Assembly: GCA_964017185.1 (NCBI GenBank) | Contig: OZ024870.1 | Span: forward strand, 22,777,621-22,841,620 | DNA: 64,000 bases | Direction of reading: 5' to 3' | Source of the DNA: Rugalucina vietnamica | Taxonomy: Eukaryota; Mollusca; Bivalvia; Lucinida; Lucinidae | Shown here: one piece after another, positions 18,022 to 51,755 of the stretch | Position numbering within the stretch: the first letter of the stretch is position 1 | Layout of the letters: every line of letters begins with the position of its first letter | Position numbers and translations under genes: made by a program | Notes under the pieces: model-generated | The model's input: only the letters and a program-made list of their open reading frames with translations | What the model was told of the DNA's origin: nothing | Databases searched by the model: none

Positions 18022-18042
18022 TGGAAGCAGGATTTTGAGAAA

Positions 18043-23905: not shown

Positions 23906-25989
23906 TTATCAATATTGACATGACTGGGTGGGGTATGTTAAACAGACATCTACTGTGTTTTTTTTTTTTAATCTGTCAATCAAATGATGATGTGCATTTA
24001 TTGCTAATAGATGTCACAGATACAAGGAATGACTAAATATAGTTATTCTTTTAAAATTTTAAATAGCTTGGTTTAGAATTGGAAATGTAACTGGTTTTCG
24101 TGGGACCCATTTCCTGGAAAATGGAATGCAAGTGAATAAAAATTACACAAAGCCTACATGTTTAGGATACATAATCTGAAAAATTAAATATTATTTTGGG
24201 GTCATGGAAATGTATTTCTCTGGAAAAAGTTAGTGTAAACATGTTTTTTTTTTTCTGGAAAATTCTCGAAGTGAGTATTTTTGGGCGGCTCGTGTGCACT
24301 TATTGTTTGCTGAAAGACATGCTTTTTGTTTCAGGTTCTTATGTGACTGAAGTCAATGACTACATCGAAAAATCTGGCTTTTTTTTTTTCAAAAAGCCCA
24401 TAAAAATGGGTCCGACGATTTCAACCTTGAAGTAACTGAAAAATGACTCACTTGCTCTGAGCTGACCACTCATTTCACAATCATGTATACACAAATCCAT
24501 GTATTTGCGACATATTCATCAGTCCCATGATAAAGCATGCTAAAGAATATAATATTGTTGACAAAAATAAACAATGCTTTTTTATGCAAGTAAATCTTCA
24601 AACATGTATACTTATCCGCAAAAGAAATGCGAAAATATTAAAACACCATTTTCTTGAAAAGAATCATTGTGATGGAATTTTCAGTGATATAACTTTTGAG
24701 TATTTTCAGTGAGCAGTAATCAACCAAAATTAAACGTTTGTAGCATTCTTCATTAAGACGTTACAATGACGTTAGTGTACGATCTCGTGTATTACGATTT
24801 TGAATCTAAAACATTCACGATTAATGCGATTTGAAAACAGATGGCGTGAAGTAGTAGCCGGGTGTCTAACCTAAAGAAATCGTACAAAAAGATTGGAAAA
24901 ATACTGCTTGTCAACGCTCCCAAGGGTCGCGTTTTTCTGTTGACGTCAGCCTATTGTTTTGAGATCGTCATTATTGTTTACTACAGACACACTATGGGCT
25001 TTCAAATTGTGATTCTGTAGGTGTCTGTTCAGTGTGTCAACAGCTATCTTATGGCACTAAAAGATTTTGAGTACGTCTATTCGCTTGCTAGAAAACACCA
25101 ATTTACGTCAAAAAGTAAAAACGATGTCACGTACAAGAAAAAAGCGTCGGAAAAGACATAAAATTTTCTGATTTGATTTTGTTTCAAACGTGACTTTCGA
25201 ATATTGGTATCGGTTTGTAAACTTTTGCAAGGTAATTAAATGTATCCTAACCCTGTAACTATGGAAATGGGTGACAACTTTTTTTTCCGCGGCAACGCGA
25301 CAAGCGTAAGTCTCAACGTCATGATTTTCTAATTTTGTGAAAGCGAATTAACGGGACTATCAATATTAATATCACTTAAAAATAAATGGCGATATAGAAA
25401 GAAAAACAAGCGTATTAGTTATTTTCGTGTTTCTTTTGCGAATACAGTTACCACACATAAGTCCTTAAAGTACTATGGAGTCACCTATGTCTTTGTATTC
25501 TGCCAAAACGTGGGTTGGCATTTCATCATAAAATTCATGGTTTGTTTTCTTGGCACAGAATACCATAGGGGACTGGGACTTTCACAGAGAAACATTTATA
25601 CTTAGGCTATGTCTCACTGCTCATATTCATGATATTTAAATCCTCTGATGCTTTAAGTCAAGGGAATCACCGGGACATTCACAGACAGACATTCTTCTAA
25701 TATCAATAATGTATTTTGCGGATTAAGGATGAATACAAAGAATATTGCCTTGTACAGCTGTATTAATACTACTAGTTTTTGACACCCTTTACTGGCATGT
25801 TAATTTCCATGACTTAAACCCTACAGAAGAGGTTTTGAATATCACGAAGAGGAGATATGTGTCATTGCTTAACAATAAATTTAGCCCACTTAGCCCCTCG
25901 GTGAAACAATCATGAAACTGTATGATGAAATGCAATGCCAACCCACGTTTTGACAGAATACAAAGTCATGGGTGACTCCAGAGTACTTT
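23906..25989. other. Central region of the long-TIR element
   Basis: No transposase. It includes a second, smaller fold-back: 25,468-25,552 pairs with 25,900-25,989 (GTATTCTG(C/T)CAAAACGTGGG). A 15-codon Arg/Lys-rich frame starts at 25,123 but is too short to support. GTTGACGTCAG at about 24,940 is CRE-like. Confidence 0.5.
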
Positions 25990-27034
25990 AAGACATGCTT
26001 ACCCCTTGAAGGAACCCATAAGCAAGCTTTGGTTGTAAAACCGTCCTACTAGAATATTAGTTTTCTTGCAAAAACACTGACATGCTTAGTTATATTGTCA
26101 CAACCGCTTTACCATGAAATTCTAAAATGTACAATGAATGAAAATCAGCGGTGTTACATTGTAAATAGAGCTCATAAAGACACCAAATTTTGGCCGTAGT
26201 ACAAAAATGGCTCTACTTTAGTAATTTACAAACAAAATTACAAACCATTAACCATGGTTCCTTGTGGTATCTTTGAAACTCGAATATCAGCGAATTTTTT
26301 TGTTAAAAATTTGGCTCCATATGGTATGTAATCAAAGAAGGCATACAGCATCACAAACTCTGGAAGTTTTATATACAGAGTAAATATTTATAGACACACT
26401 TAACACATTACTTATATAAACAAATTCATCCAGATGTCTATTTCTTGCCAGTGAAGATTGTTCAAAAGCAAGAAGAGTTGTCAATTTATTTCTGAATATG
26501 GCAGGGGCATATCAATAACTGAACGCACTTTTATAAATGATTGTGAAACTGAACTTAAAATACACTCTGGCCATTAAAATGAAAAAATGTTGATTGTGGA
26601 GCATCTCTATGATCGATATGAGATACAGAAAGGTATTCAGAAAATAACATGACAGTTAAGTCAGTGAGGCTCTGGTGAACAAAGTTCTTCAACAGGAAGC
26701 ATAACAAACTATTTGTATCCCATTCAGGAATCATAGATCTTATTATATGTTCCTAAATAGGAATCACTGTTTCCTAAATGGGCATCACTTATTTTTCTAG
26801 CTCCCAAATAGGAATCACAGAAAATCAGAAAAAAATCCTGATTTTAAACCTTAATAACTTTTTTTCTAGACAATTAAAAAAATCTGAACGGTCTTATTCA
26901 TCTTTAAGCTCTCCAAAATTGGTGGAAATCGGTTAAAAACTGTGATACATTTTTTTCGATTTTCTGAGAGTACTATAAAAATGATAAAAGCAATCTAGGT
27001 CAGTGATACTCAATAAGGCATCTCTCCTCCACTG
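25990..27034 (-). repeat. Right long inverted arm
   Basis: Reverse complement of the left arm, roughly 90 percent alike by eye, including TCTATTTCTTGCCAGTGAAG and TGGCAGGGGCATATCAATAA. The divergence is spread evenly, so the element is not very young. Confidence 0.75.
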
Positions 27035-28947: not shown

Positions 28948-29149
28948 TTAAGGTCTTCTTTTTGAAAATGAAATCGAGATCCTTCAAAGCATTGCGAAAA
29001 AGAATGATCAATTTAATTTTATTGATGCACATGGCAAACTCCATTGTAATAAAATTAAAATGCTGCACTCACTACTGATTTGGGTTTCTGCCCTATATCT
29101 TTGAGCTGCCACCTAGAAACCCTGTCTTTGAAATCCAGAAACAATCAGT

Positions 29150-29361
29150 TATGAGGAAACCGGATTTTTGCCTATGCGAAAACAAAGGCTCAGATCAGCG
29201 AAGCTGCTCAGCGCATTTGTTTTCGCTACTCGATAGTACAATTTCTCTTCTTCCTAAATCCGAAATTTCAAGCTTCTAGCCATCTTCTGTGCTTGTACAA
29301 CTCGGTTTGTGTCAGACATGGTCGGAAACCCTGAAGACAGGTTTTCTCGCGTCGCGGCTCA
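29150..29361. mobile_element. TGAGCC MITE copy 7
   Basis: The ATGAGGAAACCGG start and GTCGCGGCTCA end are the second end-variant of the family. The same insertion occupies the same place in units B (40,283-40,494), C (only the right half, 53,673-53,794) and D (61,873-62,099), so it predates unit duplication. Confidence 0.75.
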
Positions 29362-29415
29362 TGTCAGTCTGGGTTGTCTGACAGAGCAGATTTCTGAAAA
29401 AAAAAATTAAAAAAA

Positions 29416-29651
29416 TGAGCCGCCTCTTGGGAAAACCAACAATCTGCATATGCGAAAATAAAGACGCAGATCAGCTTCGCGGTTACCGCGAAGCTGATCA
29501 GCGCCTTTGTTTTCGCAACTCGGATAGTACAATTCCTCTTCTACTTAAATCCGAAATTTCAAGCTTCTAGATCTTTTCTGTGCTTGTACAGGCCGGTTTG
29601 TGTCGGACCTGATCGGAAACCACATTGTTGGTTTTCCCACGAGGTGGCTCA
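29416..29651. mobile_element. TGAGCC MITE copy 8, complete
   Basis: TGAGCCGCCTC ... GAGGTGGCTCA, 236 bp, with the full central palindrome GATCAGCTTCGCGGTTACCG / CGGTAACCGCGAAGCTGATC. It is shared with unit D (62,152-62,387) but absent from units B and C at the same place. Confidence 0.8.
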
Positions 29652-31180
29652 AATGTTATGTACGTCAGCTTATTGCATAAATTCCAGTGTTAATAAAATT
29701 ATTTAATTGAGAGTCATAACGAGCATTCTTCCTGTATTGTTTCTCAAACATTTACACCAATTTAGTATTATTTTTTCAAGGGCTCTAAATTCTAAACAAG
29801 ACAGCCTTAACATTTAACTATTCCTGAAAAGTGCACATGAAATTTTAGACGGGAAAATAATCTAATGAGACTGTTTCCTAATAGTTAGGTCAGAATCTTT
29901 CCTAAATAATCTGTCTGATAACTTGTTTACAAATTGAGCAGAAAATGACTGACATTGATAAGGCTTCAAGTGCTTTAGAAATGGACATAACTGGGACTTA
30001 ATATGTTAGGAAAAGTAAATTTGCGCTTTGAATGGATTATTTTGTTGAAAGATTGCACTCAATCAGCATGTTAGTTCTCATTAGAAACATCTAGCACATT
30101 TGCTTCAATTGACTACCGAGGACGTTATAACTGTCAGGCGCTTAACGGCTTAATTGGCACAAGATTATCATGCAACGTGGGGTGTGTTTTTGCAAGTAAA
30201 CTTGAGGCACTTGAGTGTGTTAGATTAATTTTAATGGAAATACTTTTTACGAATAAACTGAATTTACACAATACAAAGTCAATACCGGTCTATCAGAGGA
30301 CCAACGGTCCTGCCAGTAAACGCTAACCTGAGATCTACTATATACTCGAATCCATGCACTTGTGCATAACCCTGAGTCAGCCTTGGACAGAGAACATACA
30401 ATAATTCTTGTATCCTTTGCCAATTTCAGCTATGTTTCCCCATTAAATGGCATTTTACCAATTTTCCTCATTCAGATGCATAGGGTACCCAAGTTGACAT
30501 TGCCATAAAATAGATCAAGGTCACCCCAAGGTCATGATTTATATAAACTTTGTAAAGCTTCATTCATTGATGCTTCATGCCAAGTTTCAAATATATAGAC
30601 CTTCAGGCTTTTAAATGATTTTACTGTTTTTAGCCCTGGCGGCTATCTTGGTCATATGACATTTATATCAACTTTCGTTCCCTCTTCTTAAGGATGCTTC
30701 ACATAAAGTTTGAATTTGATTTTCCCTGGGGGTTGCACAGGAGAAGATGTTTGAAAAGAGTGAAAGACGACGACAACTACGACTACGACGACTACGGACG
30801 ATAGAGCATGCCTATCCTGTAAGGTCGCATATGAGCATTCGGCTCAGGTGAGCTGAAGCTGCTGCTTCACTCGAGGTTTCTCTTATACATACATGAAATA
30901 CTTTTTTACTTTGATTCCAGTAGCAAAGTTCAATAAAAACTGAAGCAATTTTAAGACAGCTGAGCACATTTTTGTCATTTATCTTTTTTCCATGACATCA
31001 GGTTTAAGCAGTGTGCTTAGACAACAAATCTTTTGAATTGTTTTCCATGTCCGACACAAACCAGTTTATGCACCGGCAGAATAAAACTACAAGTTTAGGG
31101 AGATGAGGGTTGCACTATAAATGGAGTAAAAACAGAAGTGTTGATAAGCAGCAAATTACTGTGTAGCTAATCAGAATCAG
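29652..31180. other. Unit A body including a single HINE-like monomer
   Basis: Contains no gene. Positions about 30,420-30,850 form one monomer of the 450 bp HINE-like family: CAAGGTCA...GATTTATATA, GGCGGC(T/C)ATCTTGGTCAT, then a GAC-rich microsatellite (30,766-30,800), then a hairpin ending CGGCTCAGGTGAGCT. Confidence 0.6.
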
Positions 31181-31199
31181 AATAGTTCACTGGTGAAAC

Positions 31200-32534
31200 G
31201 TCAAACTGACAATACCAAACCAGGGGAGATGGGGCTTGACCGGAGGGGATAAAAAGGTACAAGTAGGCAAAGATCAGGAAAAGGTGCAATCAGAAAAAGA
31301 TCCCCACTCCAAAAACCGAGTTGGGAAAAAACCAAACTAACAACCAGGTACTTATACAATGAAAACATATCGTAAGCCGAATGAGCAGCTATTTTCCCCA
31401 ATAGGTGGCCACTCAATTACCTTAACTTAACTAAAAATATGAAAACATACATAAGGCGCCAACAGCACAAAAATTTTAAACACCAAGACATAAAACAAAA
31501 AGAACCACCACAGAAGTATCGCCTTGGAACGATCAGTAGCACAAAGTTACTGGCGGGCTTAAACCGGTTTTACCTACTTGTACCTTTTTATATCAGAGTT
31601 TTTGTGGTTGTGCCGTGCGGCGGCCCTAAAAAGTCTCCACGTACATCCATTTAATGCTCTTATTTTTTCCAATCCTCAGGGATTGCTTGCAATCAGTTCA
31701 GTTTTTATTTTGCTCTGGAGTCAGTAGGTTATTCGGCGCCCAGGGATCTCCATCGTCGGGCAGCTTACTCAATCTGTGAGTCCTGGTTTTTGATTCATCA
31801 GGATGTTTATCATGATTTATTAGTTTGTTCTTGATGATTCATTGACTAGTTAGAGATTCACCACGAGGACCGAAGAATTAACTTAATGTTATGAACCACT
31901 GCAGAAGCTGAGGGTGAGGTTATGGCCATGTAAAACCGCTTTTGAACCACTGCAGAAGCTGAGGGTGAGGTACGTTATGGCCATGTAAAACCGGTTTAAG
32001 CCCGCCAGTAGCTTTGTGTTACTGATCGTTCCAAGGCGATACAGCGATAAGCGATACTTCTGTGGTGGTTCTATTTTATGTCTTTGTGTTTAAAACTTTT
32101 TGTGCTGTTGGTGAAATATGTATATGTTCATATTTTTAGTAAAGTTAAGGTAACTGAATGGCCACCTATTGGGAAAATAGCTACTCATTCGGCTTACGAT
32201 ATGTTTCATGGTATACGTACCTGATTGTTAGTTTGGTTTTTTCCCACCTCGGTTTTTGGGGTGGGAATCTTTTTCTGATTGCGCCTTTTCCTGATCTTTG
32301 CCTACTTGTACCTGTTTACATGGCCATAACCTCACCCGCAGCTTCTGCAGTGGTTCATAACATTTAGTTAGCTCTTCGGTCCTCGTGGTGAATCTCTAAC
32401 TAGTCAATAAATCACCAAGAACAAACAAATAAATCACGATAAACATCCTGATGAATCAAAATCCAGGACTCACAGATTGAGTAAGCTGCCCGACGATGGA
32501 GATCCCTGGGCGCCGAATAACTTACTAACTTACT
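31200..32534. repeat. Unit-junction cluster of RT-tail repeats
   Basis: Three pieces: a core in minus orientation (31,254-31,576), a forward copy (31,720-32,317) and a partial minus copy (32,318-32,532). Between the first two, 31,634-31,700 is a minus-strand fragment of the LINE ORF1 region (GATTGCTTGCAATCAGTT). The same cluster occurs at 55,880-57,180 between units C and D but not between B and C or D and E. Confidence 0.75.
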
Positions 32535-32915
32535 ACATTTGCTTGTAAAAATGCAAGTTGGTGTCTAACATACCGTAATTCATTTTGTTCACAAATGTAA
32601 GAGAATGATTCCCAAAGCTTAAAATCAAAACTTTTACAACAGAATTTTTAAACATTTTCTAAGCACTGAACTTTACATAAAATTGGGGCATGACTTACAA
32701 ATATTGAAGAGAGACATATTACAAATTAATAACTTCATGCTCTAGAAAGTCATAGAGGTTTACGGTCTGAAAAAGGTCGTGGATACCTTGGCTTACAGAA
32801 AAAGTAACGTATTTGTGTAGAAGGGGTTTTTTTATAATTACAAGCAGCAATATATTATGAGTATATTTGAGGAATTTGATTCAATTTAAATGATAACAGT
32901 AGTAATGGATGCCAC

Positions 32916-33076
32916 TATAGCCCAAAACTTATAGCCCAAAACTTACAGCCCAAAATTTATAGCCCCAAACTTATGGCCCAATTTCAAATAAGCGCAGCGC
33001 CTGAAATTAGGGCCATAAGTTTTGGGGCTTTAAGTTTTGGGCTATAAGTTTGGGGGCTATAAGTTTGGGGCTATAG
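32916..33076. repeat. Cruciform block in the left TIR
   Basis: Four and a half copies of a 14 bp unit (TATAGCCCAAAACT) run in one direction, then in the other, giving a near-perfect stem of about 64 bp. The loop (32,980-33,011) holds its own small stem AATTTCA...TGAAATT around GCGCAGCGC. The mirror block lies at 37,153-37,305 in the right TIR. Such terminal hairpins could act in replication or transposase recognition. Confidence 0.8.
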
Positions 33077-33156
33077 GTGCGCACCCTGGGTCTCAGTTTA
33101 TGAACTAGCTAAGTTGCATGTGTAGGTAAGTATCCTTGAGTTAAGACAAGCCTGCA

Positions 33157-33430
33157 CATCTGCACATCTGCTCATCTGCACATTTGCACATCTGCACATC
33201 AGCTCATCTGCACATCTGCTCATCTGCACATCTGCACATCTGTACATCTGCACATTTGCACATCTGCACATCTGCTCATCTGCACATCTGCTCATTTGCA
33301 CATTTGCTCATTTGCACATATGCACATCTGCACATTTGCACATCTGCACTTCTGCACATTTGCATATCTGCACTTCTGTACATCTGCACATTTGCATATC
33401 TGCACTTCTGTACATCTGCACATTTGCAAG
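33157..33430. repeat. TGCACATC 8 bp minisatellite, left TIR
   Basis: About 34 copies of TGCACATC with variants TGCTCATC, TGCACATT and TGTACATC. The 8 bp period is not a multiple of three, and lack of stops gives artificial frames such as MHICTSAHLHIC on both strands; these are rejected as genes. Confidence 0.9.
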
Positions 33431-33498
33431 TTTTCTGTAGGTAAGTTCCATTACGAAATTAAGAAAGGGCCTTTTTCTTCTAGTGTTCCTGGGTAGAC

Positions 33499-34067
33499 GT
33501 ATTTGATTTTGCAGTAACATCCACATCTACACAAACATAGAAACTTCAAGTAAAATGCCTCTTTGTTTTATTATTATTCACAGATCAGTACAGGTCATTA
33601 AAACTTTATATAACTGAAGCTTTCAAAGATGATTAAAATTTGTGAATGGAAATTTGCATATGGAAATCCATTCTCATATCAAAAGTAAGAAAAGTGTTGC
33701 AATTATTTTATTGAATGTAATACAATTTACTTAAATATCACATTTTCTAATTAAAAAGAAAATAAATAAACACATTTTGCTTGAATATGCACAGAAACGT
33801 TTTATTAATTTTATAGTTGATATATTTTTACGTTCAAGGGGAACTATCGATATTGGTTTTTTTTTTCTGAGAAAAGTAGGTTAGCATTTTCAGAAAATTA
33901 TAAAACTGAAAGTAGATGATTTTCGGAAAATGACACATGAATGAAAATCGACAACAGATGATTTTATATACAGTTTTGCATTTAAATCAAACTGATATAA
34001 AGCATTTGCATTTCTGAAGTTATCCATTCACTCAAGTAGTACTGACACATTCTGTAGTTCTTCAAAC
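33499..34067. promoter_or_regulatory. Leader region with TATA box for gene 1
   Basis: AT-rich non-coding stretch between the left TIR and gene 1. TATAAA at 33,996-34,001 lies 67 bp before the ATG at 34,068. Nothing else is recognised. Confidence 0.5.
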
Positions 34068-34911
34068 ATGAAGGATTTTTACATTACATTACTCAGTGAC
34101 AGTTCTATGGACATGTTCCCATCAACTAAACAGTCTGAATTTACTGTAAGATTGGATCATCCTATTAAAATTGACGTGGAAAGCTGGGAGGTTGCCTTGG
34201 TTGAAATTGCAACACCATCTGAAGTTCTCAACATAACAGAAGAAAACAACTATTTCTTTTTGACTTTCCTAGACCAATCCAGTTTACGCAGAGTTGGAAA
34301 TCAAAACATCACAGAGATATGTAGCAGTGAAAACGGCTGCTATAACTTCAAACTAACAATTCCAACTGGAAATTATGAGTCACATGAATATCTAGCTGAA
34401 GAAATGCAGAACTCCATTGACAACTTTGAAAAAGGCATACTGAAAAAAATTCAATGCTCCCATTACTATGACATATGATCATTTGAGTCAACGTTTCAAA
34501 ATATCAGCCCAAAACGAACGGCTGGTTAGGATAATATTCCCAAAACAATTTGCTCAGATCTTAGGATTAGATTCATCATTAGTCGAAAAGCCTATAGGAA
34601 ATGAGCAAAATGTGTTTAAGTTCAATGCAAAGTTGAATCACAATTTTAGCAACTTCTATGTTTATTCTGACATTGCAAGTTTCACTTTTATTGGTGATAC
34701 TGTAGCACCTATTTTACGAGTTGTTCCATTTCAAAGTAAATCAGATTCATATTTCTTCTATAAAGAATTTAAAACTCTGCACTATGTTTCTGTTTCAAAA
34801 TCTATTGTAGACCAAGTGAACATTACATTAAAACCAGAAAATGGTATGATTGTTCCTTTTGTAACAGGCACAACTATTTTAAAATTACACTTTCGTAGAA
34901 AGAAAAACTAG
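34068..34911 (+). pseudogene. Element gene 1, two-part protein broken by one base
   Basis: The first frame (34,068-34,478, 136 codons) starts MKDFYITLLSDSSMDMFP and has SWEVALVEI at about residues 38-46. The second frame (34,468-34,911) contains IGDTVAPILRVVPF and ends LKLHFRRKKN. The FY-T-L-S-S-S-M-x-x-F/YP opening, WEVAL-E and final LHFRR recur in uncharacterised proteins of about 280-300 residues that I associate with Polinton/adintovirus-like elements of invertebrates; a virion structural role is plausible but unproven. The two frames are offset by one base at a run of seven A (34,443-34,449). The shift is +1, so classic -1 slippage would not rescue it. No signal peptide or membrane segment is evident. 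Confidence 0.7.
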
Positions 34912-34919
34912 TATAAATA
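34912..34919 (+). promoter_or_regulatory. TATA box for gene 2
   Basis: TATAAATA begins at the base after the stop codon of gene 1 and ends 49 bp before the ATG of gene 2. Its position in a 57 bp gap suggests separate transcription of gene 2. Confidence 0.6.
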
Positions 34920-34968
34920 CAATCTAAGAGTTTGTAAAATTATCAGTTTTGTACAACACGCTTAAGAG

Positions 34969-35283
34969 ATGACTTCTTTAGAAAAACAGACAAAACAATC
35001 CTGCAAGGCTATGGAAGAATCTAAGAAAACACCTGTGACACAGAAACCGAGTGGATCTCATGCAAGTTATGCACAGATCAGAAACCTTATGAAAAGGTTG
35101 AATACAGCTTTGAGTAAAAGGCTTAGAGAGGGCCGACCATCGAAGTATTGCAGAGTGTGTCGGGCTGAACTGTTAAAAGAACTGTCAGAGAAAAAGAAGA
35201 AATCAACAGCTAAACGTCAGAGGATTACAAAGAAACCCAATCTGAGAAGAACTAGAACAAAACTAACTCCAGCGATGGTATAA
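34969..35283 (+). CDS. Element gene 2, small basic protein, 104 aa
   Basis: Intact frame starting MTSLEKQTKQSC. Residues about 33-60 form a probable basic helix (ASYAQIRNLMKRLNTALSKR). A Cys pair, YCRVC (61 and 64), is followed by a Lys/Arg-rich tail (KKKKSTAKRQRITKKP) that looks like a nuclear-localisation or nucleic-acid-binding segment. The net charge is strongly positive. The family is not recognised; by size, charge and position it could be a DNA-condensing or core protein, which is inference. The ATG is the first after the TATA box. It lies 57 bp after gene 1 and 47 bp before gene 3. Confidence 0.65.
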   Translation: MTSLEKQTKQSCKAMEESKKTPVTQKPSGSHASYAQIRNLMKRLNTALSKRLREGRPSKYCRVCRAELLKELSEKKKKSTAKRQRITKKPNLRRTRTKLTPAMV

Positions 35284-35286
35284 AAG
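35279..35286 (+). promoter_or_regulatory. TATA box for gene 3, overlapping the gene 2 stop
   Basis: TATAAAAG includes the TAA stop of gene 2 (35,281-35,283) and lies 45 bp before the ATG of gene 3. Sharing bases between a stop codon and a TATA box is typical of tightly packed viral genomes. Confidence 0.6.
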
Positions 35287-35330
35287 AGACAGACTCAGGA
35301 TGAATCTCAGTATTCTTCGACTAACCAGCT

Positions 35331-35612
35331 ATGGGTCGATATCAGTGCCATCAGTGCGATCGAGTATTTGCCAGATCATACAATTTGAGAAGACACAAGG
35401 ACAGTGGTATCTGCAGAGGTGCTGAGGTTAACATGTTAGACAGTGATGAAGAAAGTGTTATGTCTGAAAGAAGATCACTGGACGATGGAAAAGACATCTT
35501 CAGAAAACCTGATCTTGAAGATGTAGAAGAAGTCGATGAGGAAGAAGAGGATGAAACTGAAGAAAGTGAGGAAAATGAGGAAGAAGAAGATGAAGAAGAA
35601 GAAGAAGAAGAA

Positions 35613-35674
<62 letters not shown>

Positions 35675-36179
35675 GGATGATATTGATGATGATGAGGAGG
35701 AGGTGGAGGAACCTCAGAAAATAAAACCATGGGATGTTTTGATGGGCGTTACGACAGATAAGATGCAAGACACTTTCAACGAAACGGTTGAAAAGGCCCT
35801 GCATGAACATCCTGGCAAAGACGTACAAGAGGCTGAAGAGATAGCATATGATGAACTAAAGCCAAAGTATCTGTCAGAGCTCGTATCCCGCTACAAGTAT
35901 CTGACTGATCTCTCAGCTGCACTAAGAAAAGATCCAGTCAACAAGAAAATACAGAAAACAGCTAAACGATTGAGGGATGAAGAAGATTATGACGAGGACG
36001 AATCAAGACTGTATGCCATCAAGAAACGAAAATTCTTGATTGAGAAGAAACTGAATGACTATGACCCACCAAGCTACGAAGTGGCCGAGGAACAGATCTT
36101 ATCGTTGCCACATAAAACACATATGAACAGTATTAACAATAAACCAAAGAGTAGCTATATTCAGGGGAAACACTTGTAA
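35331..36179 (+). CDS. Element gene 3, zinc finger plus acidic protein, 282 aa
   Basis: Intact. Residues 4-28 form one Cys2-His-Cys zinc finger (YQCHQCDRVFARSYNLRRHK; C6, C9, H22, C28) with the F and L of classical fingers. Residues about 50-126 are extremely acidic, including a long Asp run encoded by GAT repeats. Residues about 133-250 form a predicted helical, mixed-charge domain with PWDVLMGVTTDK, ELKPKYLSELVSRYKYL, KRLRDEEDYDEDESRLYAIK and KKRKFLIEKKL. I recall similar finger-acidic-helical proteins beside gene 1-type proteins in invertebrate virus-like elements; the function is unknown, and nucleic-acid binding through the finger is the only safe inference. The start is the first ATG after the TATA box. 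Confidence 0.75.
35614..35675. repeat. GAT trinucleotide run inside gene 3
   Basis: About twenty GAT codons. Being a multiple of three it can change length without breaking the gene, and it reads as poly-Asp. The antisense frames of poly-His and poly-Ile are artefacts. Confidence 0.95.
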
Positions 36180-36185
36180 ACGAGA

Positions 36186-36246
36186 ACAGAGGGACGGTCC
36201 TAATCCTCTGTTTCATCGTGCATTCATAGTTAGCGGGACAAATAAA
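36186..36246 (+). terminator. Hairpin and AATAAA after gene 3
   Basis: AACAGAGG (36,185-36,192) pairs with CCTCTGTT (36,205-36,212). AATAAA follows at 36,241-36,246, 62 bp after the stop. This is the only obvious polyadenylation signal after the gene cluster. Confidence 0.55.
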
Positions 36247-36284
36247 AATTGTTGAAAATGTTAAAGTCAGTCTTGGGTTTTCAT

Positions 36285-36325
36285 TTCTCCTCTCAGGAGG
36301 TAGTTCCTCTCAGGAGGTAGTAGTA
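36285..36325. repeat. Duplicated CCTCTCAGGAGGTAG
   Basis: Two copies in direct order (about 36,288 and 36,306), each a small self-complementary word (CTCC...GGAG). They lie between the polyA signal and the AGATA hairpins. Confidence 0.7.
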
Positions 36326-36366
36326 AAGGGTTTAAAGTTTGACAATAACTAGCTGAGTTTTTTTAC

Positions 36367-36564
36367 GCTTATCGATGTTCTCGAGATACGAGAACATTGA
36401 AAAGCCTCAATATATTAGGAAGACGCTATAAAGTTATGCCTTTTGACTAGTTGAGGTCTTGAGATACAAGATCAAGAGACAGTGAAACGCGTACCACTTT
36501 ACAGCCTCTAAGGAAGCTATAGAGTCATGCCTCTAATAGAGTTGAAGTCTTGAGATACAAGACT
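36367..36564. ncRNA. Three hairpins with a constant AGATA loop
   Basis: Hairpin 1: ATGTTCTCG-AGATA-CGAGAACAT (36,375-36,397), extendable with one mismatch and one G-T pair to 36,367-36,405. Hairpin 2: TCTTG-AGATA-CAAGA (36,457-36,471) plus two outer pairs. Hairpin 3: AGTCTTG-AGATA-CAAGACT (36,546-36,564). The loop is identical while stem 1 has a different sequence yet stays paired. Modules 2 and 3 also share upstream sequence (GCTATA(A/G)AGT(T/C)ATGCC). This may be a structured RNA or repeated protein sites; it is a candidate only. Confidence 0.5.
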
Positions 36565-36663
36565 AAGACACTCTTCAGATGCATTCAGCTGTATAGCAAC
36601 ATAATCTACTACATACCCACACAACTGTCCCAGACAAGTCCAGCAAGTGTCACAACGTGAGAA

Positions 36664-37322
36664 GTCTACCCAGGAACACCAGAGGAAAAAGGCCCTTTCT
36701 TAATTTCGTAATGGAACTTACCTACAGAAAAACTTGACTATGTTACTTACTCGCAAATGTGCAGATGTACAGAAGTGCAGATATGCAAATGTGCAGATGT
36801 GCAAATGTGCAGATGTACAGATGTGCAGATGTGCATATGTGCAAATGTACAAATGAGCAGATGTGCAAATGAGCAGATGTGCAGATGAGCAGATGTGCAG
36901 ATGTGCAACTGTGCAGATGTGCAGATGAGCATATGTACAGATGTGCAGATGTGCAAATGTGCAGATGAGCAGATGTGCAGATGTGCAGATGAGCAGATGT
37001 GCAGATGAGCAGATGTGCAGATGAGCAGATGTGCAGATGTGTAAATGTGCAGATGTGCAGATGAGCAGATGTGCAGATGTGCAGGCTTGTCTTAACTCAA
37101 GGATACTTACCTACATGCAACTTAGCTAGTTCATAAACTGAGACCCAGGGTGCGCACCTATAGCCCCAAACTTATAGCCCCCAAACTTATAGCCCAAAAC
37201 TTATAGCCCCAAAACTTATGGCTTTAATTTCAGGCGCTGCGCTTATTTGAAATTGGGCCATAAGTTTTGGGCTATAAGTTTTGGGCTATAAGTTTTGGGC
37301 TATAGTGGCATCCATTACTACT
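36664..37322 (-). repeat. Right terminal inverted repeat
   Basis: About 659 bp, complementary to the left TIR. The minisatellite here (about 36,765-37,086) is longer, and a short stretch at about 36,733-36,756 is not matched on the left. The outer cruciform block is at 37,153-37,305. Confidence 0.85.
36765..37086. repeat. GATGTGCA 8 bp minisatellite, right TIR
   Basis: About 40 copies, complement of the left array. Variant order differs from the left array, so the two arrays have changed independently since insertion or are not homogenised by conversion. Confidence 0.9.
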
Positions 37323-37814
37323 GATAACACGCTTTGCATAGCCAGTTTTCTACTTTACCGGAGGGCAGGTGTCAAAACGTGATAAAATGTTACGTTTTTC
37401 CCATTGTGTTTTGCATGTGAAAGTCGCGTACAGATACGGCAAAACAGCTACAAAAACAGAAAAGCCATCAGTCTGTCATTTACTAGTAAACAATTTACAT
37501 AGACGAGTTTTTAAAGTTCGGAAGATCACCTGTAATGAGAGGACGGGCACCAGTCTGACATGCTCACAGAAAAACAAATACTTTCACATGTTCAACAGTT
37601 GGTCAGCATTCGATAGCTGAAAATGTGTTGATATCTAATCATCTCATGTGGTAAATCTTTGAAACATCGAATGAACTTGTCACAAATATATAACGCGCTG
37701 ACGGCGTAAACATCAAGGAACGCCATCGAGACGTTAACCCCTGCCTCGCACCCTGTTAGGGAGGTGATCGGAAAAGGCTGTAGAAAACGTAGTTTTGGTC
37801 AGATTTTCATAAAA

Positions 37815-38270
37815 CTTGCATTCTTCTAGAAATTGAGAGGCCAACTTTCGGGGAAGAAAGCTGCTCGCTCATCTTACTCGATGTTCTATGTCTATCACTA
37901 CATATTTGCCTTTTACTGTCCTTACACCATCTTTCAGAAACTGCCGATTTCAAGTTCACCCTTTCCTGAAACACCTCCTGAAATTTGTGAAGATGTCATC
38001 CTTTACCACTCTGAAAGTCTTAAAAAGTGCCACAAATATAAAATCAGTTCACTAATAAAAATAAACATTAAAATTGAGATTCTAGCAAAATCTGTGGAGC
38101 AGTTTTAAGTGTTTTGAGCTCAGTTATATTTGATATACAATTTTGCTTTGTTTTGGTGCATTTCCAACCAAAAACAATCAGTTTTGTCTTTTTGCCGGGG
38201 AAAATAGTTTTTCTCCCTTGCTCACATATTTACAATGGATGAAGCCCTATTCAAAATTACATTTTGGCAG

Positions 38271-38305
<35 letters not shown>

Positions 38306-38340
38306 TTTTGAACCGATTATCAAACATTTAAGACTTCTTG
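37815..38340. other. Unit B segment with a poly-T tract
   Basis: Matches 51,232-51,790 and 59,405-59,935. An open frame of 91 codons (37,833-38,108) is nearly the same in unit D but is shifted in C. The T run is about 30 bases here, about 54 in C and about 50 in D. Confidence 0.6.
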
Positions 38341-40282
38341 TGCAAATGGGTGACGCAATCATATTTTTCTGAATGTGTTTCAGAAATTAAAGTAAGATTT
38401 TGAAAAAGGCATTTTCTGAAAGATGATGTATGGACAGTAGTTGTTTCCCATCTGCTCGTTGAATAATGAATCCAGTGCTAAAGTAAGGAAGATGAAATAA
38501 TATTGAAAAAAAAACTAATGTTTATCATTTATTGTTATGAGTGCATATATTGCACTTTAGTTATCTTATTATAAAAAAGCACCCAGCCCATCAGAAGAAA
38601 AAGGTAAACTTCCTTTTGGGTATCCATCATGTTCTGGCAAAACCTGATTTGTCAAGCTACATATAGAAAAATGTTAACGCCTTTATTTTTTAATTCAAAT
38701 GGTTTAAATCTTTTCCCTGATCTGGCATTAAAGTGTTATTTTAGTGATAATAACAATTATAATAAGTTTTATTTCTCAATATAACAAAATTTGATGTTAG
38801 CATATTGGTGAGTATAAACTAATATAATGGTATTTCTATTTTCGCTATCGTTTGGATAATTATAAAATGCTAATATCATCTGTTTGAAGCAAACAACCGT
38901 TAGAAAAAATGAAAATCCCTCAGCCCATAACACACAAAAAAATAAATATATCCAACCCTAGCACCAAAATTAGTATCAGTCTGCTTTTTGCTTTTCAAAA
39001 CATGGCAGTGTCTAGGAAATTAAACAAATAGTGAAGAGAGACAAATTAAACATGTACTTTGAAAAAAAAAATATTTGTTTGCTTAAAAACAAACTGTACA
39101 TTATGGTGTTGTGATAATACCCCACACACAAAACTTCCTGGCTTACTTTGTAAAATGAACCCCTTTTGACTGATAAATTGTGTTCTGTGTCAATATAATG
39201 ACTTAAATGTCATGTCAAGTTGTAAATGTCAAAAGCAATAAGAATAATGCACAATAATATTCACATTTTCAGACAATCTTAAATTCGACTGACAAAATCA
39301 TGTTTTTGAGACAAATCCATCATGCACATATATATTTGTAACTATAAACCAAGTTCAATTTGTAGATGATACAAGAAATCGATGGAAACTACAGTTACTT
39401 TTTCAACGAAACTAATAAAAGTGAAATTCACTTAATTGTGCATTAAAAGCATATTTTTAATGAAAAAGAAAAAACAAACATAGATTTGTATACATATTTT
39501 TAGTTTACACTGAACCTATACTCATATTATACTATGTAACCCAAATATTCAAAATAACTTTGTGTCGTATACATCATTATTTTCTGATTTCATTTTGGTT
39601 TACTCCTCAACACAGTTAGTTTTTCAGACAATAATGCATTATTCAGATGACTAATGACAACAACCGCAATACCATTCACAATTGGTTCTTTCATATTCAT
39701 AAAGCAAACTTACATTATGTTACCAACATAAGTCATAGCATTTTTTCTAAAAGATGCAAGTTCACAAGACTTCTTCCACATTATAAATACACATCCAAGC
39801 AATGTACAAAGCTTTTTACAACAGAAAGAAAAAAACATTAAAGGACCTTGCAGAAGTATAAGACTTCAACATCTGAAAATCATGACTTTATTTTAACAGA
39901 ATCAAGAAAGAATTAAAATCATTTAAGATGCATTAGTAAGTTGGTGTAATAGGCATAATTATCGTTATTAACAGCAAGGTTGGGGAAAGCTTTCAATTTC
40001 CACTTAAATTCAGCCAAAGATATTTAAGGTCTTCTCTTTGAAAATGAAATTGAGATCCTTCGAAGCATTGCGAAAAGGAATGGTCAATTTAGTTTTAATC
40101 TGATGCACTTGGCAAACTTAAATCATCATTGTTATAAAATCAAAATGCTGCACTCACTACTGATTTGGTTTCTGTCCTTATATCTTTGAGCTGTCACCTA
40201 GAAATCCTGCCTTTGGAATCCAGAAACAATCAGTCACTCTTCTTAAGTAAGCCGCCAGTCACTCTTCTTTAGTAAGCCGCGT
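38341..40282. other. Unit B body, non-coding
   Basis: Closely matches 51,790-53,680 and 59,940-61,870. It includes the CATGTCAAGTTGTAAATG segment found diverged at 830-960, and the 330 bp segment at 39,885-40,215. No gene: short minus-strand frames at 52,243/60,393 and 52,468/60,618 are conserved only as much as the DNA around them. Confidence 0.6.
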
Positions 40283-40494
40283 CATGAGAAAACCGGTTCT
40301 TCGCCTATGCGGAAACAAAGGCACAGATCAGCTTCACTGTAACTGCGAAGCTGATCAGCGCCTTTGTTTTCGCTACTCGGTTAGTACAATTTCTCTTCAA
40401 TCTAATTCCGAAATTCCAAGCTTCTAGCCATCTTCTGTGCTTGTACCGACCTGGTCGGAGACGCGGAAGACCGGTTTTCTTGGGTCACGGCTCA
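40283..40494. mobile_element. TGAGCC MITE copy 9
   Basis: Same locus as copies 7, 10 and 11 in the other units. The central palindrome (CAGATCAGCTTCACTGTAAC / TGCGAAGCTGATCAGCG) has several mismatches. Confidence 0.7.
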
Positions 40495-41226
40495 TGTAAG
40501 GCTTGGTTGTCTGACAGAACAGATTTCTGAAAAAAAATATCTTAAAATGTGACAGTCAAAATATGTTATATTCACGACCTTATTTCATTAATTCTAGTGT
40601 TAATAAAATTTTGATGGGCAATGCATAATTACGACTCATAAAGAGCATTTCAAACATTTACACCAATTTAGTATTATTTTTTCAAGGGCTCTAAATTCTA
40701 AGCAAGACAGCCTTAACATTTAACTATTCCTGAAAAGTGCACATGAAATTTTAGATGGGAAAATAATCTAATAAGCCTGTTTCCCTAATAGTTAGGTCAG
40801 AATCTTTCCTAAATAATCTGTCTGAAAACTTGTTTACAAATTGAGCAGAAAATGACTGACGTTGATAAGGCTTCAAGTGCTTTAGAAATGGACATAACTG
40901 GGACTTAATATGTTAGAAAAAGTAAATTTGCGCTTTGAATGGATTATTTTGTTGATTGCACTAAATCAACATGTTTGTTCTCATTATAAACACCTCGCAC
41001 ATTTGTTTCTATTGATTACCAAGGACATTGTCACTATCAGGAGCCTTACAACTTAATTGGCACCAGATTATCATGAAATATTTAATAAGCAACACGTGTG
41101 CTTTTTGCAAATTAACTTGGGTACCTCAGTGTGTCATTTATTTTGATGGTATTAATGCCTTTTTTTACGAAATTGTCAATTTCTTTGGTATAAATATTGA
41201 TCCCAAAGTTAAAATATACTCCTCCT

Positions 41227-41227
<1 letters not shown>

Positions 41228-41258
<31 letters not shown>
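41228..41258. repeat. Poly-A tract in unit B
   Basis: A run of about 31 A, followed by a segment (41,259-41,810) that has no counterpart at the same place in units A, C and D, so it probably marks a retroposed insertion whose boundaries are not otherwise clear. The insert carries no recognisable gene. Confidence 0.6.
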
Positions 41259-41261
<3 letters not shown>

Positions 41262-42191
41262 GGGTCATCCAAAATGTGTGTCAACAAATAAACAAAACTA
41301 TTTTCTACTTTTTGTAAGTTTTATAATACTTGGTAAAATCAAGTGTAAACAAAGTGCATACAGTGTACATCAATTGCGCATGCTCAGTTCCGAACACAGA
41401 TATTCTAGTAGATCGATTACAAATGGATGGGGTATATAGTCTAATGACCCGTCCATACTTTTTCCCTCTGGATAGACGCCTCCGTGTAGTCATATTGTAT
41501 TCATGAGTCGTGCACTTGATCCATGGCCTCTACAGCCTTCCAGATAAAATTTTCATCACGCTGTATCTCAATATGACACTATCTGTTAGTAGGATGATCA
41601 CTGACAAAGCAACATCAGTTGCAGTTTTGGGTTTGGAATAAGGGTTTTTAAGGGTATGATCATAGTTAGCAAATTTATACAAAATATGAAAATGCTAACA
41701 ATTGTTACAGTTCTTACAGCTTTAGGTGACCGGATTTTTAGGAGGAGTATATTTATAGTAGTTCGCAGTGAGTGGCACTATAGAACAAATTTATAAAATT
41801 TATAAACTAAATTTTCAGATTACAAAGTCAATACCAGTCTACTAGAGGACCAATGTTCCTGTAAACGCTCACCTGATATCTACTATATACTCGAATCCAT
41901 GCCCTTGTGCATAAACCTGAGTCAGCCTTGGACAGAGAACATACAGTTAATCTTGTATCCATTAGCCCATTTCTGCAATGTTTCCCCGTCAAAAGTCACT
42001 TTACAAATATTCCTCATTCAAATTCATAGGGTACCAAAGTTGACATTGACATAAATTAGACCACATGCCAAGTTTCAAATTCATAGACTTTCATGCTTCG
42101 GCGACGAAGAAGGATGTTGCTGTTTATAGCTCTGGCGGCCATCTTGGTCATATGACCTGAACAATTTATATAAACTTTTGTTCCCTCTTCC

Positions 42192-43052
42192 TTTCGGAAT
42201 CAGAATTTTATGGTCACTTGGTTTACAAACTTAAGAAACTTATAGGAAGGAATGATTTTTCTTTTCAATTCAGAAAAATAAGCCGTTACAGACGTATAGG
42301 ATATAACTTAAATGTTATGCGACAGTCTGCATGCTTAGTTTTTAACCCTATCACGGTTGATAACTATGCTGCCTTCTTTAATTGCACGCCGGTGGGTCGG
42401 GCGTCAGACTCTATGATGACCCCGACATAAAGCTATTCATTTTAGTTGGTTGGGACCGGAGCTTCTTGTCTGTTGCTTGGCCCACCGGGGTTCAACTGGT
42501 GTTTTTCTTTTGCTCCGCAGTTAGTAAGTTATTGGGCGCCCAGTGATCTCCATCGTCGGGCAGCTTACTCAATCTGTGAGTCCTAGTTTTTGATTCATCA
42601 TGGAATTTATCATGATTTATTTGTTTGTCCATGATGATTCATTGACTAGTTAGAGATTCACTACGAGGACCGAACAATTAACTAAATGTTATGAACCACT
42701 GCAGAAGCTGAGGGTGAGGTTAGGATCCTGTAAAACCGGTTTAAGCCCGTCAGTAATTTTAGATTAATGATTGTTCCAAGGCGATACTTCTGTGGTGGTT
42801 CTTATTGTTTTATGTCTTGGTGTTTAACATTTTTGTGCTGTTGGAGCCTTATGTATATTATCATATTTTTAGTTAAGTTTAGGTAACTGAGTGGTCACCT
42901 ATTGAGAAAATAGCTGCTCATTCGGCTTACAAAATGTTTTCATGGTATAAGTACCTTATTGTTAGTTTGGTTTTTTCCCGCCTCGGTTTTTTGGAGTGGG
43001 AATCTTTTTCTGATTGCAACTTTTCCTGATCGTTGCCTGCTTGTACCTTTTC
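42192..43052 (+). mobile_element. 5'-truncated RT element with tail
   Basis: Inserted in unit B where the other units read CCCTCTTCTTAAGGATGC. It carries the extreme C-terminus of the RT protein (LVYKLKKLIGRNDFSF ... YRRIGYNLNVMRQS ... FNCTPVGRASDSMM, stop at 42,430), better preserved than at 9,045. The tail repeat then runs to TTGTACCTTTT. The unit bases TTAAGGATGC are missing, implying a small target deletion. Confidence 0.75.
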
Positions 43053-43186
43053 ACATAATTGGCTTTGATTGGCACAGGGTTTTCAGAGCAGATGTTTGGA
43101 AAGTGTGAAAGACGACGACAACTACTACGACTACGACGACGACGGGTGCCAGAGCATAACTATCCTATAAGCTCGCCTATGAGCAT

Positions 43187-44383
43187 GCAGGCATGTGTGC
43201 AAAACGATGGAGAGTTCTCTGAACCCTTTGAGGTAACGAATGGGGTGAAACAGGGCTGTATTATGGCACCAACACTGTTCAGCATGATGTTTTCTGCCAT
43301 GCTCATGGATGCTTTTCAGGACAGTGACACTGGTTTTCCAATCAGGTCCCGTTTTGATGGCAATATATTCAACCTTAGAAGGTTGCAAGCCAAACCTAAG
43401 GTGCAGACTGATGTGCTAGATGAGCTCCTCTATGGAGATGATATGGATAAGAATACTAGCTCAGAGGCAAAAATGCACAGAGCCATGGATCAAGTCTCAC
43501 AGTCATGTGATAACTATGACCTCACAATCAGCACAAAAAAGACAGAGGTTGTACACCAACCAGTACCTGGAAAACCGTACATTGAACAAACCATCACTGT
43601 GAATGGACAAAAACTGAAAGCTGTTGATAAATTCACCTACTTGGGAAGCACTCTTTCCAGAGCAGTGCACACTGATGATGAGGTCACTGCCAGTATTGCA
43701 AAAGCCAGTGTGACATTCGGAAGACTCCGTGCAAATGTCTGGGAGCGTAGTGGAATCAAGCTTGACACCAAGCTGAAAGTGTACAAGGCTGTGGACCTGG
43801 ACAGCATACCAACGCCATGCAAAGAGACTTAACCATTTCCACTTAAGCTGGTTGAGAAAGCTGTTAAAATCTAAGTGGCAAGACAAGATTCCAGACACGG
43901 AGGGAAGAAAGCAGGGATGCAAAGCATGCATATTGTCTTAAAGCTAGCACAGCTAAGGTTGCCTGGCCATGTTATAAGAATGCCTGAAGAAAGTCTTCTA
44001 TGGAGAACTACAAGAAGAGGGAAATCTCTCTCAAGGTGGCCAGAAGAAACGCTGCAAAGACACCCTCAAAGCCTCTCTGAAGGATTTCGACATACCAGTT
44101 AGGTATTGGGAACAAACTGCACATGAGCCCTCAAAGTGGCGAGGTCTCATCAACAAAGGAGCAGCTCTCTATGAAAAAGAGAATCTGTGAAGCTGAAAGA
44201 AAGTGCAGAGAACGCAAAGCCAATACCAATGGGCCACCAGCTGAGTCCATGACATTGACATGACTTGCAACCGACAGTTTGGAGTTAGAATTGGTCTAGT
44301 CAGCCATCAAAGAACTCACCAACACACACGAACCTGTTCAAGAAATAATGATGGCCTTTCTCATTAGTGAGAGACGAACGACC
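43187..44383 (+). pseudogene. Non-LTR RT relic, 5' truncated, 25 bp target duplication
   Basis: Begins in mid-RT (QACVQNDGEFSEPFEVTNGV, KQGCIMAPTLFSMMFSAML). The catalytic box reads LLYGDDMD, so both Asp remain. Then come ISTKKTEVVHQP and FTYLGSTLSR. The frame breaks at about 43,830; the rest (NHFHLSW-like, WQDKIPDTE, then MQSMHIVLKLAQLRLPGH) lies in other frames and ends in a C2H2-like trace, TCNRQFGVRIGLVSHQRTHQ. A 25 bp stretch (43,162-43,186) is repeated with one mismatch at 44,384-44,408. It landed inside the HINE-like tail of unit B. Confidence 0.8.
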
Positions 44384-45139
44384 ATCCTATAAGCTCGCCT
44401 ATTAGCATTCGGCTCAGGTAAGCTAAAGATGCTGCTTCACTTGAGGTTTCCCTTGCAAATATTTTGAATACATACATGAAATCTACTCGTTTTACTTTGG
44501 ATCCAGTAGCAAAGTTTAATAAAAACTAAATCGATTTTAAAACAGCTTAGTACATTTTGTCATTTATCTTTTTTCCAAGACATCAGGTTTAAGCAGTGTG
44601 CTAAGAAAACAAATCTTTTGAATTGATTTCCATGTCCGACACAAACCAGTTTATCTACCGGCAGAATAAAACTACAAGCTTGAAATTTTGAATTTAGAGA
44701 GATGATGGTTGCACTATAAACGTAGTAAAACAGAACTGCTGATAAGCAGCATCATAACTTGAAGTTGAACGATACATTTGCTTGTACAAATGCAAGGAGT
44801 TGGCGTCTAAAACAATTCATTTTGTTCACAAATGTAAGCGAATGATTCCCAAAACTAACATCAAAGCTTTTACAACAGTTTCTAAACATTTTCTAAGCAC
44901 TGCATTTGCATAAAATTGGGGCATATCTTTAAGCCAGATAATGCCTTACAAATAATGCAGAGAGACATATTGCAAATTAATTACAATCCTGCTCTAGAAA
45001 GTCATAGAAGTTTGTCTGAAAAGTTTGTGGATACCATGGCTCACAGAAAAAGTGACGCGTTTGTGTAGAAGTGTTTTTATAATGACAAGCAGCAGTATAC
45101 ATGTATTATGAGTTTATTTCAGGAATTTGGCTCAATTTG

Positions 45140-45165
45140 AAATAATAACACGCTTCCTATAGCCA
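45140..45165. other. Empty site of the 4.4 kb element
   Basis: CAATTTGAAATAATAACACG in unit C aligns with the left flank CAATTTAAATGATAAC and right flank GATAACACGC of the element in unit B. Only one copy of (G/A)ATAAC is present, confirming that the second GATAAC arose by insertion. Confidence 0.85.
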
Positions 45166-45479
45166 GTTTTGTACTTTACGGTAGGGCCGCGCGGGGCAGG
45201 TGTCAAAACGTGATAAAATGACGTTTTTCACATTGTGTTTTGCATGTGAAATCGCGTACAGATACGGCGAAAAGCTACAAACAACAGAAAAGCCATCAGC
45301 CTTTTATTTACTAGTAAACAATTTACATAGATGAGGTTTTAAAGCTCGGAAGATCACCTGTGATGAGAGGAAGGGCACCAGTCAGACGAGCTCACAGAAA
45401 AACAATATACAATTGTTGCCCTTGAGTGAGGGTGACATGACGATTTGTTCACCAGAGGCAAGTGATATTGTCCGAGGGC

Positions 45480-51231: not shown

Positions 51232-51690
51232 TTGCATTCTTCTAGAAACTGAGAGGCCAACTTTTAGGAAAAAAAACTGCTCGCTCATCTTACACGATGT
51301 TCTCTGTCTATCAAGTTACATATTTGACTTTTACTGTCCTTCCACCATCTTTCAGAAACTGCCGATTTCAAGTTCACCCTTTCCTGAAACACCTCCTGAA
51401 ATTTATGAAGATGTCATCCGTTACCACTCTGAAAGTCTTAAAAAGTGCCACAAAAATAAAATCAGTTCACTAATAAAAATAAATATTAAAATTGAGATTC
51501 TAGCAAAATCTGTGGAGCAGTTTTAAGTGTTTTGAGCTCAGTTATATTTGATATACAATTTTGCTTTGTTTTGGTGCATTTCCACCCAAAAACAATCAGT
51601 TTTGTCTTTTTGCCGGGGAAAATAGTTTTTTCCCTTGCTCACATATATACAATGGATAAAGCCCTTTTCAAAATTACATTTTCAATTGGC

Positions 51691-51692
51691 AG

Positions 51693-51749: not shown

Positions 51750-51755
<6 letters not shown>

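What the first reader, a model, noticed from the sequence alone, without database searches (positions are those of the whole stretch)
32892..37328. A 4.4 kb Polinton-like element with perfect ends but only three genes
Directly visible: complementary 600-660 bp ends, a 6 bp duplication GATAAC on both sides, and an uninterrupted copy of the target in the neighbouring unit. Known for Polintons/Mavericks: 6 bp duplications, long TIRs, AG-type termini, and 15-20 kb with polymerase, integrase, ATPase and capsid genes. Here none of the replication genes is present, yet gene 2 and gene 3 are intact, and the third is broken by a single base. A tiny element keeping probable structural genes and perfect ends is unusual: it could be a satellite moved by a full Polinton, or a new compact virus-like lineage.
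Basis: partly seen in the sequence, partly recalled or inferred. Interest (0 to 1): 0.88.

Follow-up and report, generated by a model that had tools for sequence, protein, structure and literature searches.

The report
Compact satellite of full-size Polintons
A 4.4 kb mobile element with three genes, one of them for a viral capsid-vertex protein, occurs in many copies in this genome and carries the same unusual hairpin ends as full-size virus-like Polintons there, so it looks like a long-lived parasite of those elements.

Summary
In detail: a 4,425 bp element with long terminal inverted repeats (TIRs), a 6 bp GATAAC duplication and an empty neighbouring site. The ends are not perfect (indels), and the empty site reads AATAAC. 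It is not a unique deletion: the 20 further copies fetched keep the compact gene order; 18 of 21 copies have 6 bp duplications, all different; 13 of 20 keep all three genes open. Gene 1 folds as a penton (capsid vertex protein); no replication gene or major capsid gene was found. Full-size (18-20 kb) Polintons with open polymerase frames lie in the same genome and share the 23 bp terminus and outer TIR; the window's left outer TIR is 97% identical to that of one 18.6 kb element. Paired termini fall mainly into 3.5-5 kb and 18-20 kb classes. None of 99 gene 4 matches lies near a listed polymerase. Best reading: a lasting satellite lineage replicated and integrated in trans by Polintons, bringing its own penton. 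Extra surprise: both element types carry a terminal hairpin (often about 145 nt) whose stem is hypervariable yet self-complementary and is swapped between elements; 47-76 bp hairpin-only inserts with target duplications exist. Trans-mobilisation and packaging are inferred, not shown.

The parts
32892..32897 (.). target-site duplication, left copy (GATAAC)
32898..33085 (+). left terminal hairpin: terminus AGTAGTAATGG, then a self-complementary stem of ATAGCCCAAAACTT-type units, 188 nt in all
   Evidence: DNA fold -66.8 kcal/mol against a mean of -18.0 for 30 shuffles
33077..33148 (+). conserved TIR core (GTGCGCACCCTGGGTCTCAG...GAGTTAAGACA), shared with full-size Polintons
33150..33430 (+). 8 bp minisatellite (TGCACATC-type) inside the left TIR, not seen in the full-size Polinton ends read here
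33430..33498 (+). inner TIR segment
   Evidence: found at both inner ends in most of the 20 fetched copies
34068..34911 (+). gene 1, penton (vertex capsid protein), broken here into two overlapping frames (34068-34478 and 34468-34911); 280 aa and open in 15 of 20 other copies
34969..35283 (+). gene 3, 104 aa basic protein
   Evidence: no convincing family
35331..36179 (+). gene 4, 282 aa: C2H2 zinc finger, long acidic stretch, helical C-terminal domain (structure predicted for a relative)
36664..36735 (-). inner TIR segment, right
36750..37087 (-). 8 bp minisatellite inside the right TIR
37088..37157 (-). conserved TIR core, right
37149..37322 (-). right terminal hairpin, 174 nt
37323..37328 (.). 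target-site duplication, right copy (GATAAC)
44800..45420 (+). uninterrupted homologous segment (empty site, target AATAAC at about 45145)

Best explanation
The element belongs to a distinct lineage of non-autonomous satellites of Polintons. Its ends are the ends of a full-size Polinton family in the same genome. Shown: the shared terminus and outer TIR, the 6 bp duplications, the penton fold of gene 1, constraint on the genes taken together, and no replication gene among the element's frames. Inferred: the full-size elements supply the protein-primed polymerase and the integrase in trans; the satellite DNA is copied from its hairpin ends; both ends are made alike and sometimes exchanged with those of helpers by foldback and template switching during replication; the helper integrase inserts the product with a 6 bp duplication. 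The kept penton gene suggests that the satellite also takes part in particle formation, placing its own vertex protein in capsids built from the helper's major capsid protein (possibly smaller ones, or ones that favour satellite DNA). Genes 3 and 4 (basic; zinc finger plus acidic) are guessed to be DNA-binding or packaging factors. Confidence by step: lasting satellite lineage with own genes 0.9; moved in trans by these Polintons 0.85; takes part in helper capsids 0.5.
Against: No transcription, particle or mobilisation data. pN/pS of gene 3 alone is weak (0.63-0.70); shared and singleton variants do not differ (p 0.39); copies were chosen for open frames and transition bias was not modelled. 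Only 9 full-size ends were compared; several compact ends have no close full-size partner among them (best partner 0.87-0.99 over aligned columns, 0.60-0.98 of the longer end). Absence of gene 3 from full-size Polintons was tested only by comparison with L039-L042; for gene 4 also by distance to 56 listed polymerase loci, a lower bound. Of the 13 shared contig lengths 11 are over 140 kb, so one contig does not mean one element. Viral contigs gave no relative.
Confidence: 0.8

Rival explanations
1. A plain internal-deletion derivative (MITE-like passenger) of a Polinton that rides on the helper's enzymes; its genes are leftovers without function.
For: Shared TIR and no replication genes.
Against: Genes stay open in most of 20 copies and are constrained as a set; genes 3 and 4 were not found in L039-L042 and gene 4 lies near no listed polymerase; the penton is about 51% diverged from the helper's and belongs to another branch whose members share contigs with gene 4 in other assemblies.
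Confidence: 0.1
2. An autonomous compact virus or transposon whose gene 3 or 4 is an unrecognised replication or integration protein.
For: Gene 4 has a zinc finger and a well predicted helical domain without a clear match; compact pairs outnumber full-size pairs, 28 to 17.
Against: No polymerase, integrase or nuclease signature; 6 bp duplications and termini are those of the integrase-bearing Polintons; hairpin-only inserts of 47-76 bp suggest that coding capacity is not needed for integration.
Confidence: 0.07
3. A relic or host-domesticated penton gene kept for antiviral defence, with the TIRs incidental.
For: A penton without a major capsid gene could disturb helper assembly (reasoning, no data); many copies per genome.
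Against: 18 different target duplications among 21 copies show past mobility; defence as a by-product is not excluded.
Confidence: 0.05

Closest known systems
Polintons / Mavericks (polintoviruses, adintoviruses)
   Same: 6 bp target duplications, long TIRs, AG-type termini, penton gene; PMC4028283 (passages) places the penton PX immediately or one gene upstream of the major capsid gene, as seems to be so at L040:7609
   Different: 4.4 kb instead of 15-20 kb; no polymerase, integrase, ATPase, protease or major capsid gene found; two genes not found in the full-size elements compared
Satellite phages that remodel helper capsids (P4, PICIs; recalled)
   Same: small element with helper-type replication signals that keeps a capsid-related gene
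   Different: here the kept gene is the vertex protein itself; the host is a eukaryote by its genome; capsid remodelling is not shown
Adeno-associated virus (recalled)
   Same: about 4.5 kb, about 145 nt terminal hairpins, one jelly-roll capsid gene, dependence on a helper of the adenovirus-Polinton world
   Different: no Rep gene or parvovirus homology found; the helper bears the same hairpins; integration with a 6 bp duplication
Virophages and transpovirons (search listings with abstract starts only)
   Same: small elements dependent on a larger virus
   Different: virophages code most of their own virion; transpovirons have no capsid gene (both recalled)
Non-autonomous DNA transposons / MITEs
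   Same: thought to be moved in trans through their ends
   Different: MITEs have no conserved genes (recalled)

Membership tests
Polinton / Maverick | 6 bp target duplication | tested here: met
   18 of 21 copies; 6 bp duplications are described for Mavericks in PMC8097293 (passages)
Polinton / Maverick | long TIRs with AG termini | tested here: met
Polinton / Maverick | protein-primed polymerase B | tested here: not met
   the four gene frames were searched; the other frames of 50 aa or more in the element lie in the minisatellite or over the acidic repeat of gene 4; present in full-size elements
Polinton / Maverick | rve integrase | tested here: not met
   as above; present in L040
Polinton / Maverick | major capsid protein and packaging ATPase | tested here: not met
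   as above; the four frames are too short for a major capsid protein
Polinton / Maverick | penton protein | tested here: met
   (relative 96% identical to an open copy; the window's own gene is broken)
Satellite of Polintons | shares replication and integration signals with a co-resident autonomous element | tested here: met
   (shared sequence; its role as a signal is inferred)
Satellite of Polintons | carries own conserved genes and forms a lineage apart from the helper | tested here: met
Satellite of Polintons | replication or packaging depends on the helper | not testable with these tools
   needs experiment
Dependoparvovirus-like | Rep gene and parvovirus capsid homology | tested here: not met
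   no such family; gene 1 matches pentons

The most novel reading that the evidence does not exclude
A convergent, AAV-like satellite of an animal Polinton: about 4.4 kb of DNA with about 145 nt terminal hairpins, packaged in a very small shell made mainly or only of its own single jelly-roll penton, helper-replicated, with hypervariable hairpin ends that act as exchangeable tags between satellite and helper.
Probability: 0.12. Interest if true: 0.97.

Novelty: new variant of a known kind. Interest (0 to 1): 0.87.

Why it matters
Mavericks encode capsid proteins, but their particles have not been observed (PMC8097293, start of abstract). A satellite that has kept a constrained penton but no replication gene would be genetic evidence that Polinton particles are made in animals and matter for spread. 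It would also be a eukaryotic counterpart of capsid-exploiting satellite phages. The hypervariable but self-complementary ends, their exchange between elements, and the 47 bp hairpin-only inserts give direct handles on how Polinton ends are copied and recognised.

Tried and rejected

Literature: phrase searches for non-autonomous, nonautonomous or miniature Polintons/Mavericks and Polinton satellites found 0 papers. Broader searches gave lists of which only the first 7-20 rows were shown; none of the shown titles or abstract starts describes such a satellite. Passages were seen in PMC4028283, PMC11071308, PMC8097293 and PMC10294476; no paper was read whole. Repbase and most subscription journals were not searched, so an earlier description there is possible.
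Full report
1. The observation. The element runs from 32898 to 37322 (4,425 bp) between two copies of GATAAC. Its arms are 32898-33498 and 36664-37322; they are alike but not perfect, with indels in an 8 bp minisatellite and in one hairpin arm. The uninterrupted target lies at about 45145 in a neighbouring unit, with one base changed (AATAAC), and aligns to the two flanks laid end to end with 485 identities, 48 mismatches and 53 gap columns. Three genes lie on the + strand; the first is split into two overlapping frames.

2. It is a family of compact elements. The window lies in an unnamed 1.09 Gb genome of 47 contigs. A DNA search with the gene 1 region gave 164 candidates, of which 40 (the window's own included) were scored: all 40 are 96-100% identical. 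All 20 have the order gene 1, gene 3, gene 4 in compact form, and most have the inner TIR segment on both sides; some hold insertions, duplications or lack a TIR match. With the window, 18 of 21 copies have termini AGTAGTWATGG (up to one mismatch allowed) and a 6 bp duplication, 16 perfect and 2 with one mismatch, all 18 different; L025 has ends without a matching duplication, L020 and L022 lack an end. In L014 and L015 more than one pair of ends fits because ends are duplicated. Gene 1 is 280 aa and open in 15 of 20, gene 3 is 104 aa in 18 of 20, gene 4 is at least 264 aa in 17 of 20, and 13 of 20 have all three.

3. The genes are constrained as a set. Among open copies pN/pS is 0.37 (gene 1, 15 copies), 0.68 (gene 3, 19 with the window) and 0.50 (gene 4, 16 with the window). 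Variants shared by two or more copies, over the three genes, give 32 replacement to 20 silent changes, pN/pS 0.39, p 0.001 against neutrality; singletons give 91 to 42, 0.53, p 0.0006; the two do not differ (p 0.39). Copies with broken frames were dropped first, columns with many gaps and codons with two changes were skipped, and transition bias was not modelled, so the true values may be somewhat higher. Gene 3 alone is weak evidence.

5. Full-size Polintons with the same ends are present. A search for DNA_pol_B_2 gave 111 matches, many in open frames of 1,100 aa or more. One element was read in pieces: 19,595 bp, terminus AGTAGTAATGG, duplication AACATT on both sides, with polymerase B, an integrase core with chromodomain, an ATPase-like and an adenovirus-protease-like protein (both below Pfam's cut-offs), and a 281 aa penton, 48.8% identical to that of the compact element, one small gene upstream of a frame that I take for the major capsid gene. 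This is the place described for Polinton pentons (PMC4028283, passages). Genes 3 and 4 had no match below E 0.2 in L039-L042 (L043, which holds the last 2.1 kb of the element, was not in that comparison). The outer TIR is shared: 92-95% over 83-106 bp of core. Of eight further predicted left ends fetched, seven had the terminus and one (L045) only the inner part; L045 was left out of the comparison. Nine full-size ends of eight elements were compared with 38 compact ends of 19 copies. The window's left outer TIR is 96.8% identical over aligned columns to that of the 18.6 kb element at C8:35990325 (its right one 97.4%); L018 is 99.1% identical to the same; L017 is 98.1% identical to that of C9:627302. 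Other compact ends have less close partners in this small sample, down to 0.87 over aligned columns and 0.60 of the longer end.

6. Main size classes. The exact terminal pattern occurs 239 times (reversed control 0). Of 232 listed places, 71 neighbouring pairs face each other: 7 of 47-226 bp, 2 of 1.8-2.0 kb, 28 of 3.5-5.0 kb, 10 of 5-9 kb, 3 of 9-17.5 kb, 17 of 17.5-21.5 kb (16 with a polymerase match) and 4 longer; the other 90 places are unpaired by this rule. None lies between 11.7 and 18.0 kb. Of the 28, 15 hold a gene 1 match; six of the other 13 were sampled and 6 of 6 carry compact genes. Of the 13 pairs of 5-17.5 kb, 8 hold such a gene 1 match. A distant relative of gene 4 found 99 matches in the genome, none within 55 kb of 56 listed polymerase loci, and 40 of 40 gene 1 matches have gene 4 within 3 kb.

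7. The lineage seems older than this genome's copies. Relatives of gene 1 and gene 4 occur in other assemblies, some of the compact-type clusters with 79-342 member sequences (the records are unnamed, and some may be this species). Contig lengths shared between the two hit lists number 13, against 0.012 expected by jittering; two of these contigs are short (6,919 and 33,016 bp), the others over 140 kb, so length identity is an indirect sign and one contig need not mean one element. In a penton tree of 39 rows, with 9 of the 13 gene-4-linked pentons put in, the full-size penton of this genome sits in a clade of 14 rows (100/98) that holds none of the 10 compact or gene-4-linked rows; these lie in at least three groups outside it. 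Whether the compact side is itself one clade depends on the root, which is not settled.

8. The ends. Each outer TIR begins with about 15 nt and then a hairpin, 120-241 nt in all in 43 of 47 ends and 72-73 nt in four (L010 right, L011 both, L013 right). Of 47 ends, 46 fold far better than 30 shuffles each (z -6 or lower; L013 right end -0.9). The stems are built of a framework (such as TTTTCTGAAAACTT) and variable words such as ATAGCCCAA, CTGGCTCCA, CTAGACCAA or ATGGGCACA. In 17 different hairpins of 140-152 nt (11 compact ends, 6 full-size ends, of 47) the 64 pairs of one reference structure are kept in 97.1% of 1,088 cells, 27 pairs with changes on both sides; sliding the partner by 1-3 bases gives 38-52% and 1-6 pairs. 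Part of this excess comes from taking the structure from one row. Ends have a history of their own: among 19 compact copies interior distance averages 1.7% and end distance 25%, uncorrelated (Mantel r 0.03, p 0.37); left and right ends of one copy differ by a median of 1.4%; L026 and L028 differ by 0.08% inside and by 20% at the ends; L010 has two quite different ends between perfect duplications, though it sits beside another terminus 73 bp away. So ends seem to be exchanged, also with full-size elements, and then made alike within an element.

9. Hairpin-only inserts. Seven pairs of termini lie 47-226 bp apart and consist of one palindrome or little more; 6 of 7 have a perfect 6 bp duplication, the seventh one mismatch. 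A pattern for such inserts gave 15 matches at 9 places, reversed control 0; two or three of the places are partial or unread. They look like snap-back products of replication that were integrated, and suggest that about 20 bp of end suffice for the integrase.

10. How it works. Shown: ends, duplications, size classes, penton fold, constraint, shared TIRs and their separate history. Inferred: replication by the helper polymerase, integration by the helper integrase, end renewal by foldback and template switching, and use of the satellite penton in particles. A small shell needs more pentons per major capsid protein than a large one, which would give a reason for keeping just this gene; this is a guess.

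11. Novelty. I found no description of Polinton satellites in the searches made, which do not cover Repbase or most subscription journals and whose longer lists were seen only in their first rows. Non-autonomous transposons and satellite viruses are known kinds; a Polinton satellite with its own penton and exchangeable hypervariable hairpins is, as far as I can tell, a new variant.

Noticed in passing
L053-L059 (G000:C1:27982202, C5:457434, C4:4463594, C9:4980351, C14:31266217, C7:11313666, C8:25242049): Hairpin-only inserts of 47-226 bp with both ends of the Polinton family; 6 of 7 with perfect 6 bp target duplications.
   Followed up: yes
L010 (G000:C1:89945124): Compact copy with two quite different TIR hairpins (53% apart) between perfect CACTAG duplications, one like L011's, the other like L024's; another terminus lies 73 bp upstream.
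   Followed up: partly
L041-L042 (G000:C2:16236001-16256000): A second Polinton family with a 1,401 aa polymerase frame and no AGTAGTWATGG terminus within these 20 kb; a frame at L042:7376-7804 (- strand) begins somewhat like a penton by eye but is short.
   Followed up: no
window 28976-32559, 37460-45410, 51227-63912: The window holds diverged duplicate copies (about 82-94% identical) of multi-kb units, into one of which the element is inserted.
   Followed up: no
window 47853-49975: Tandem array of roughly 150-bp units, 70-84% alike.
   Followed up: no
window 15492-20118: Long + strand frames that read like a LINE (endonuclease- and reverse-transcriptase-like by eye, not searched).
   Followed up: no
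window 22894-23901 and 25988-26990: Inverted pair of about 1 kb, 89% identical.
   Followed up: no
L044 (JANQEW010000021.1): Penton-like 290 aa frame on a 4.2 kb contig filed as a Rhodospirillales MAG; no further viral gene recognised on it, possibly a mis-assembly or contamination.
   Followed up: partly
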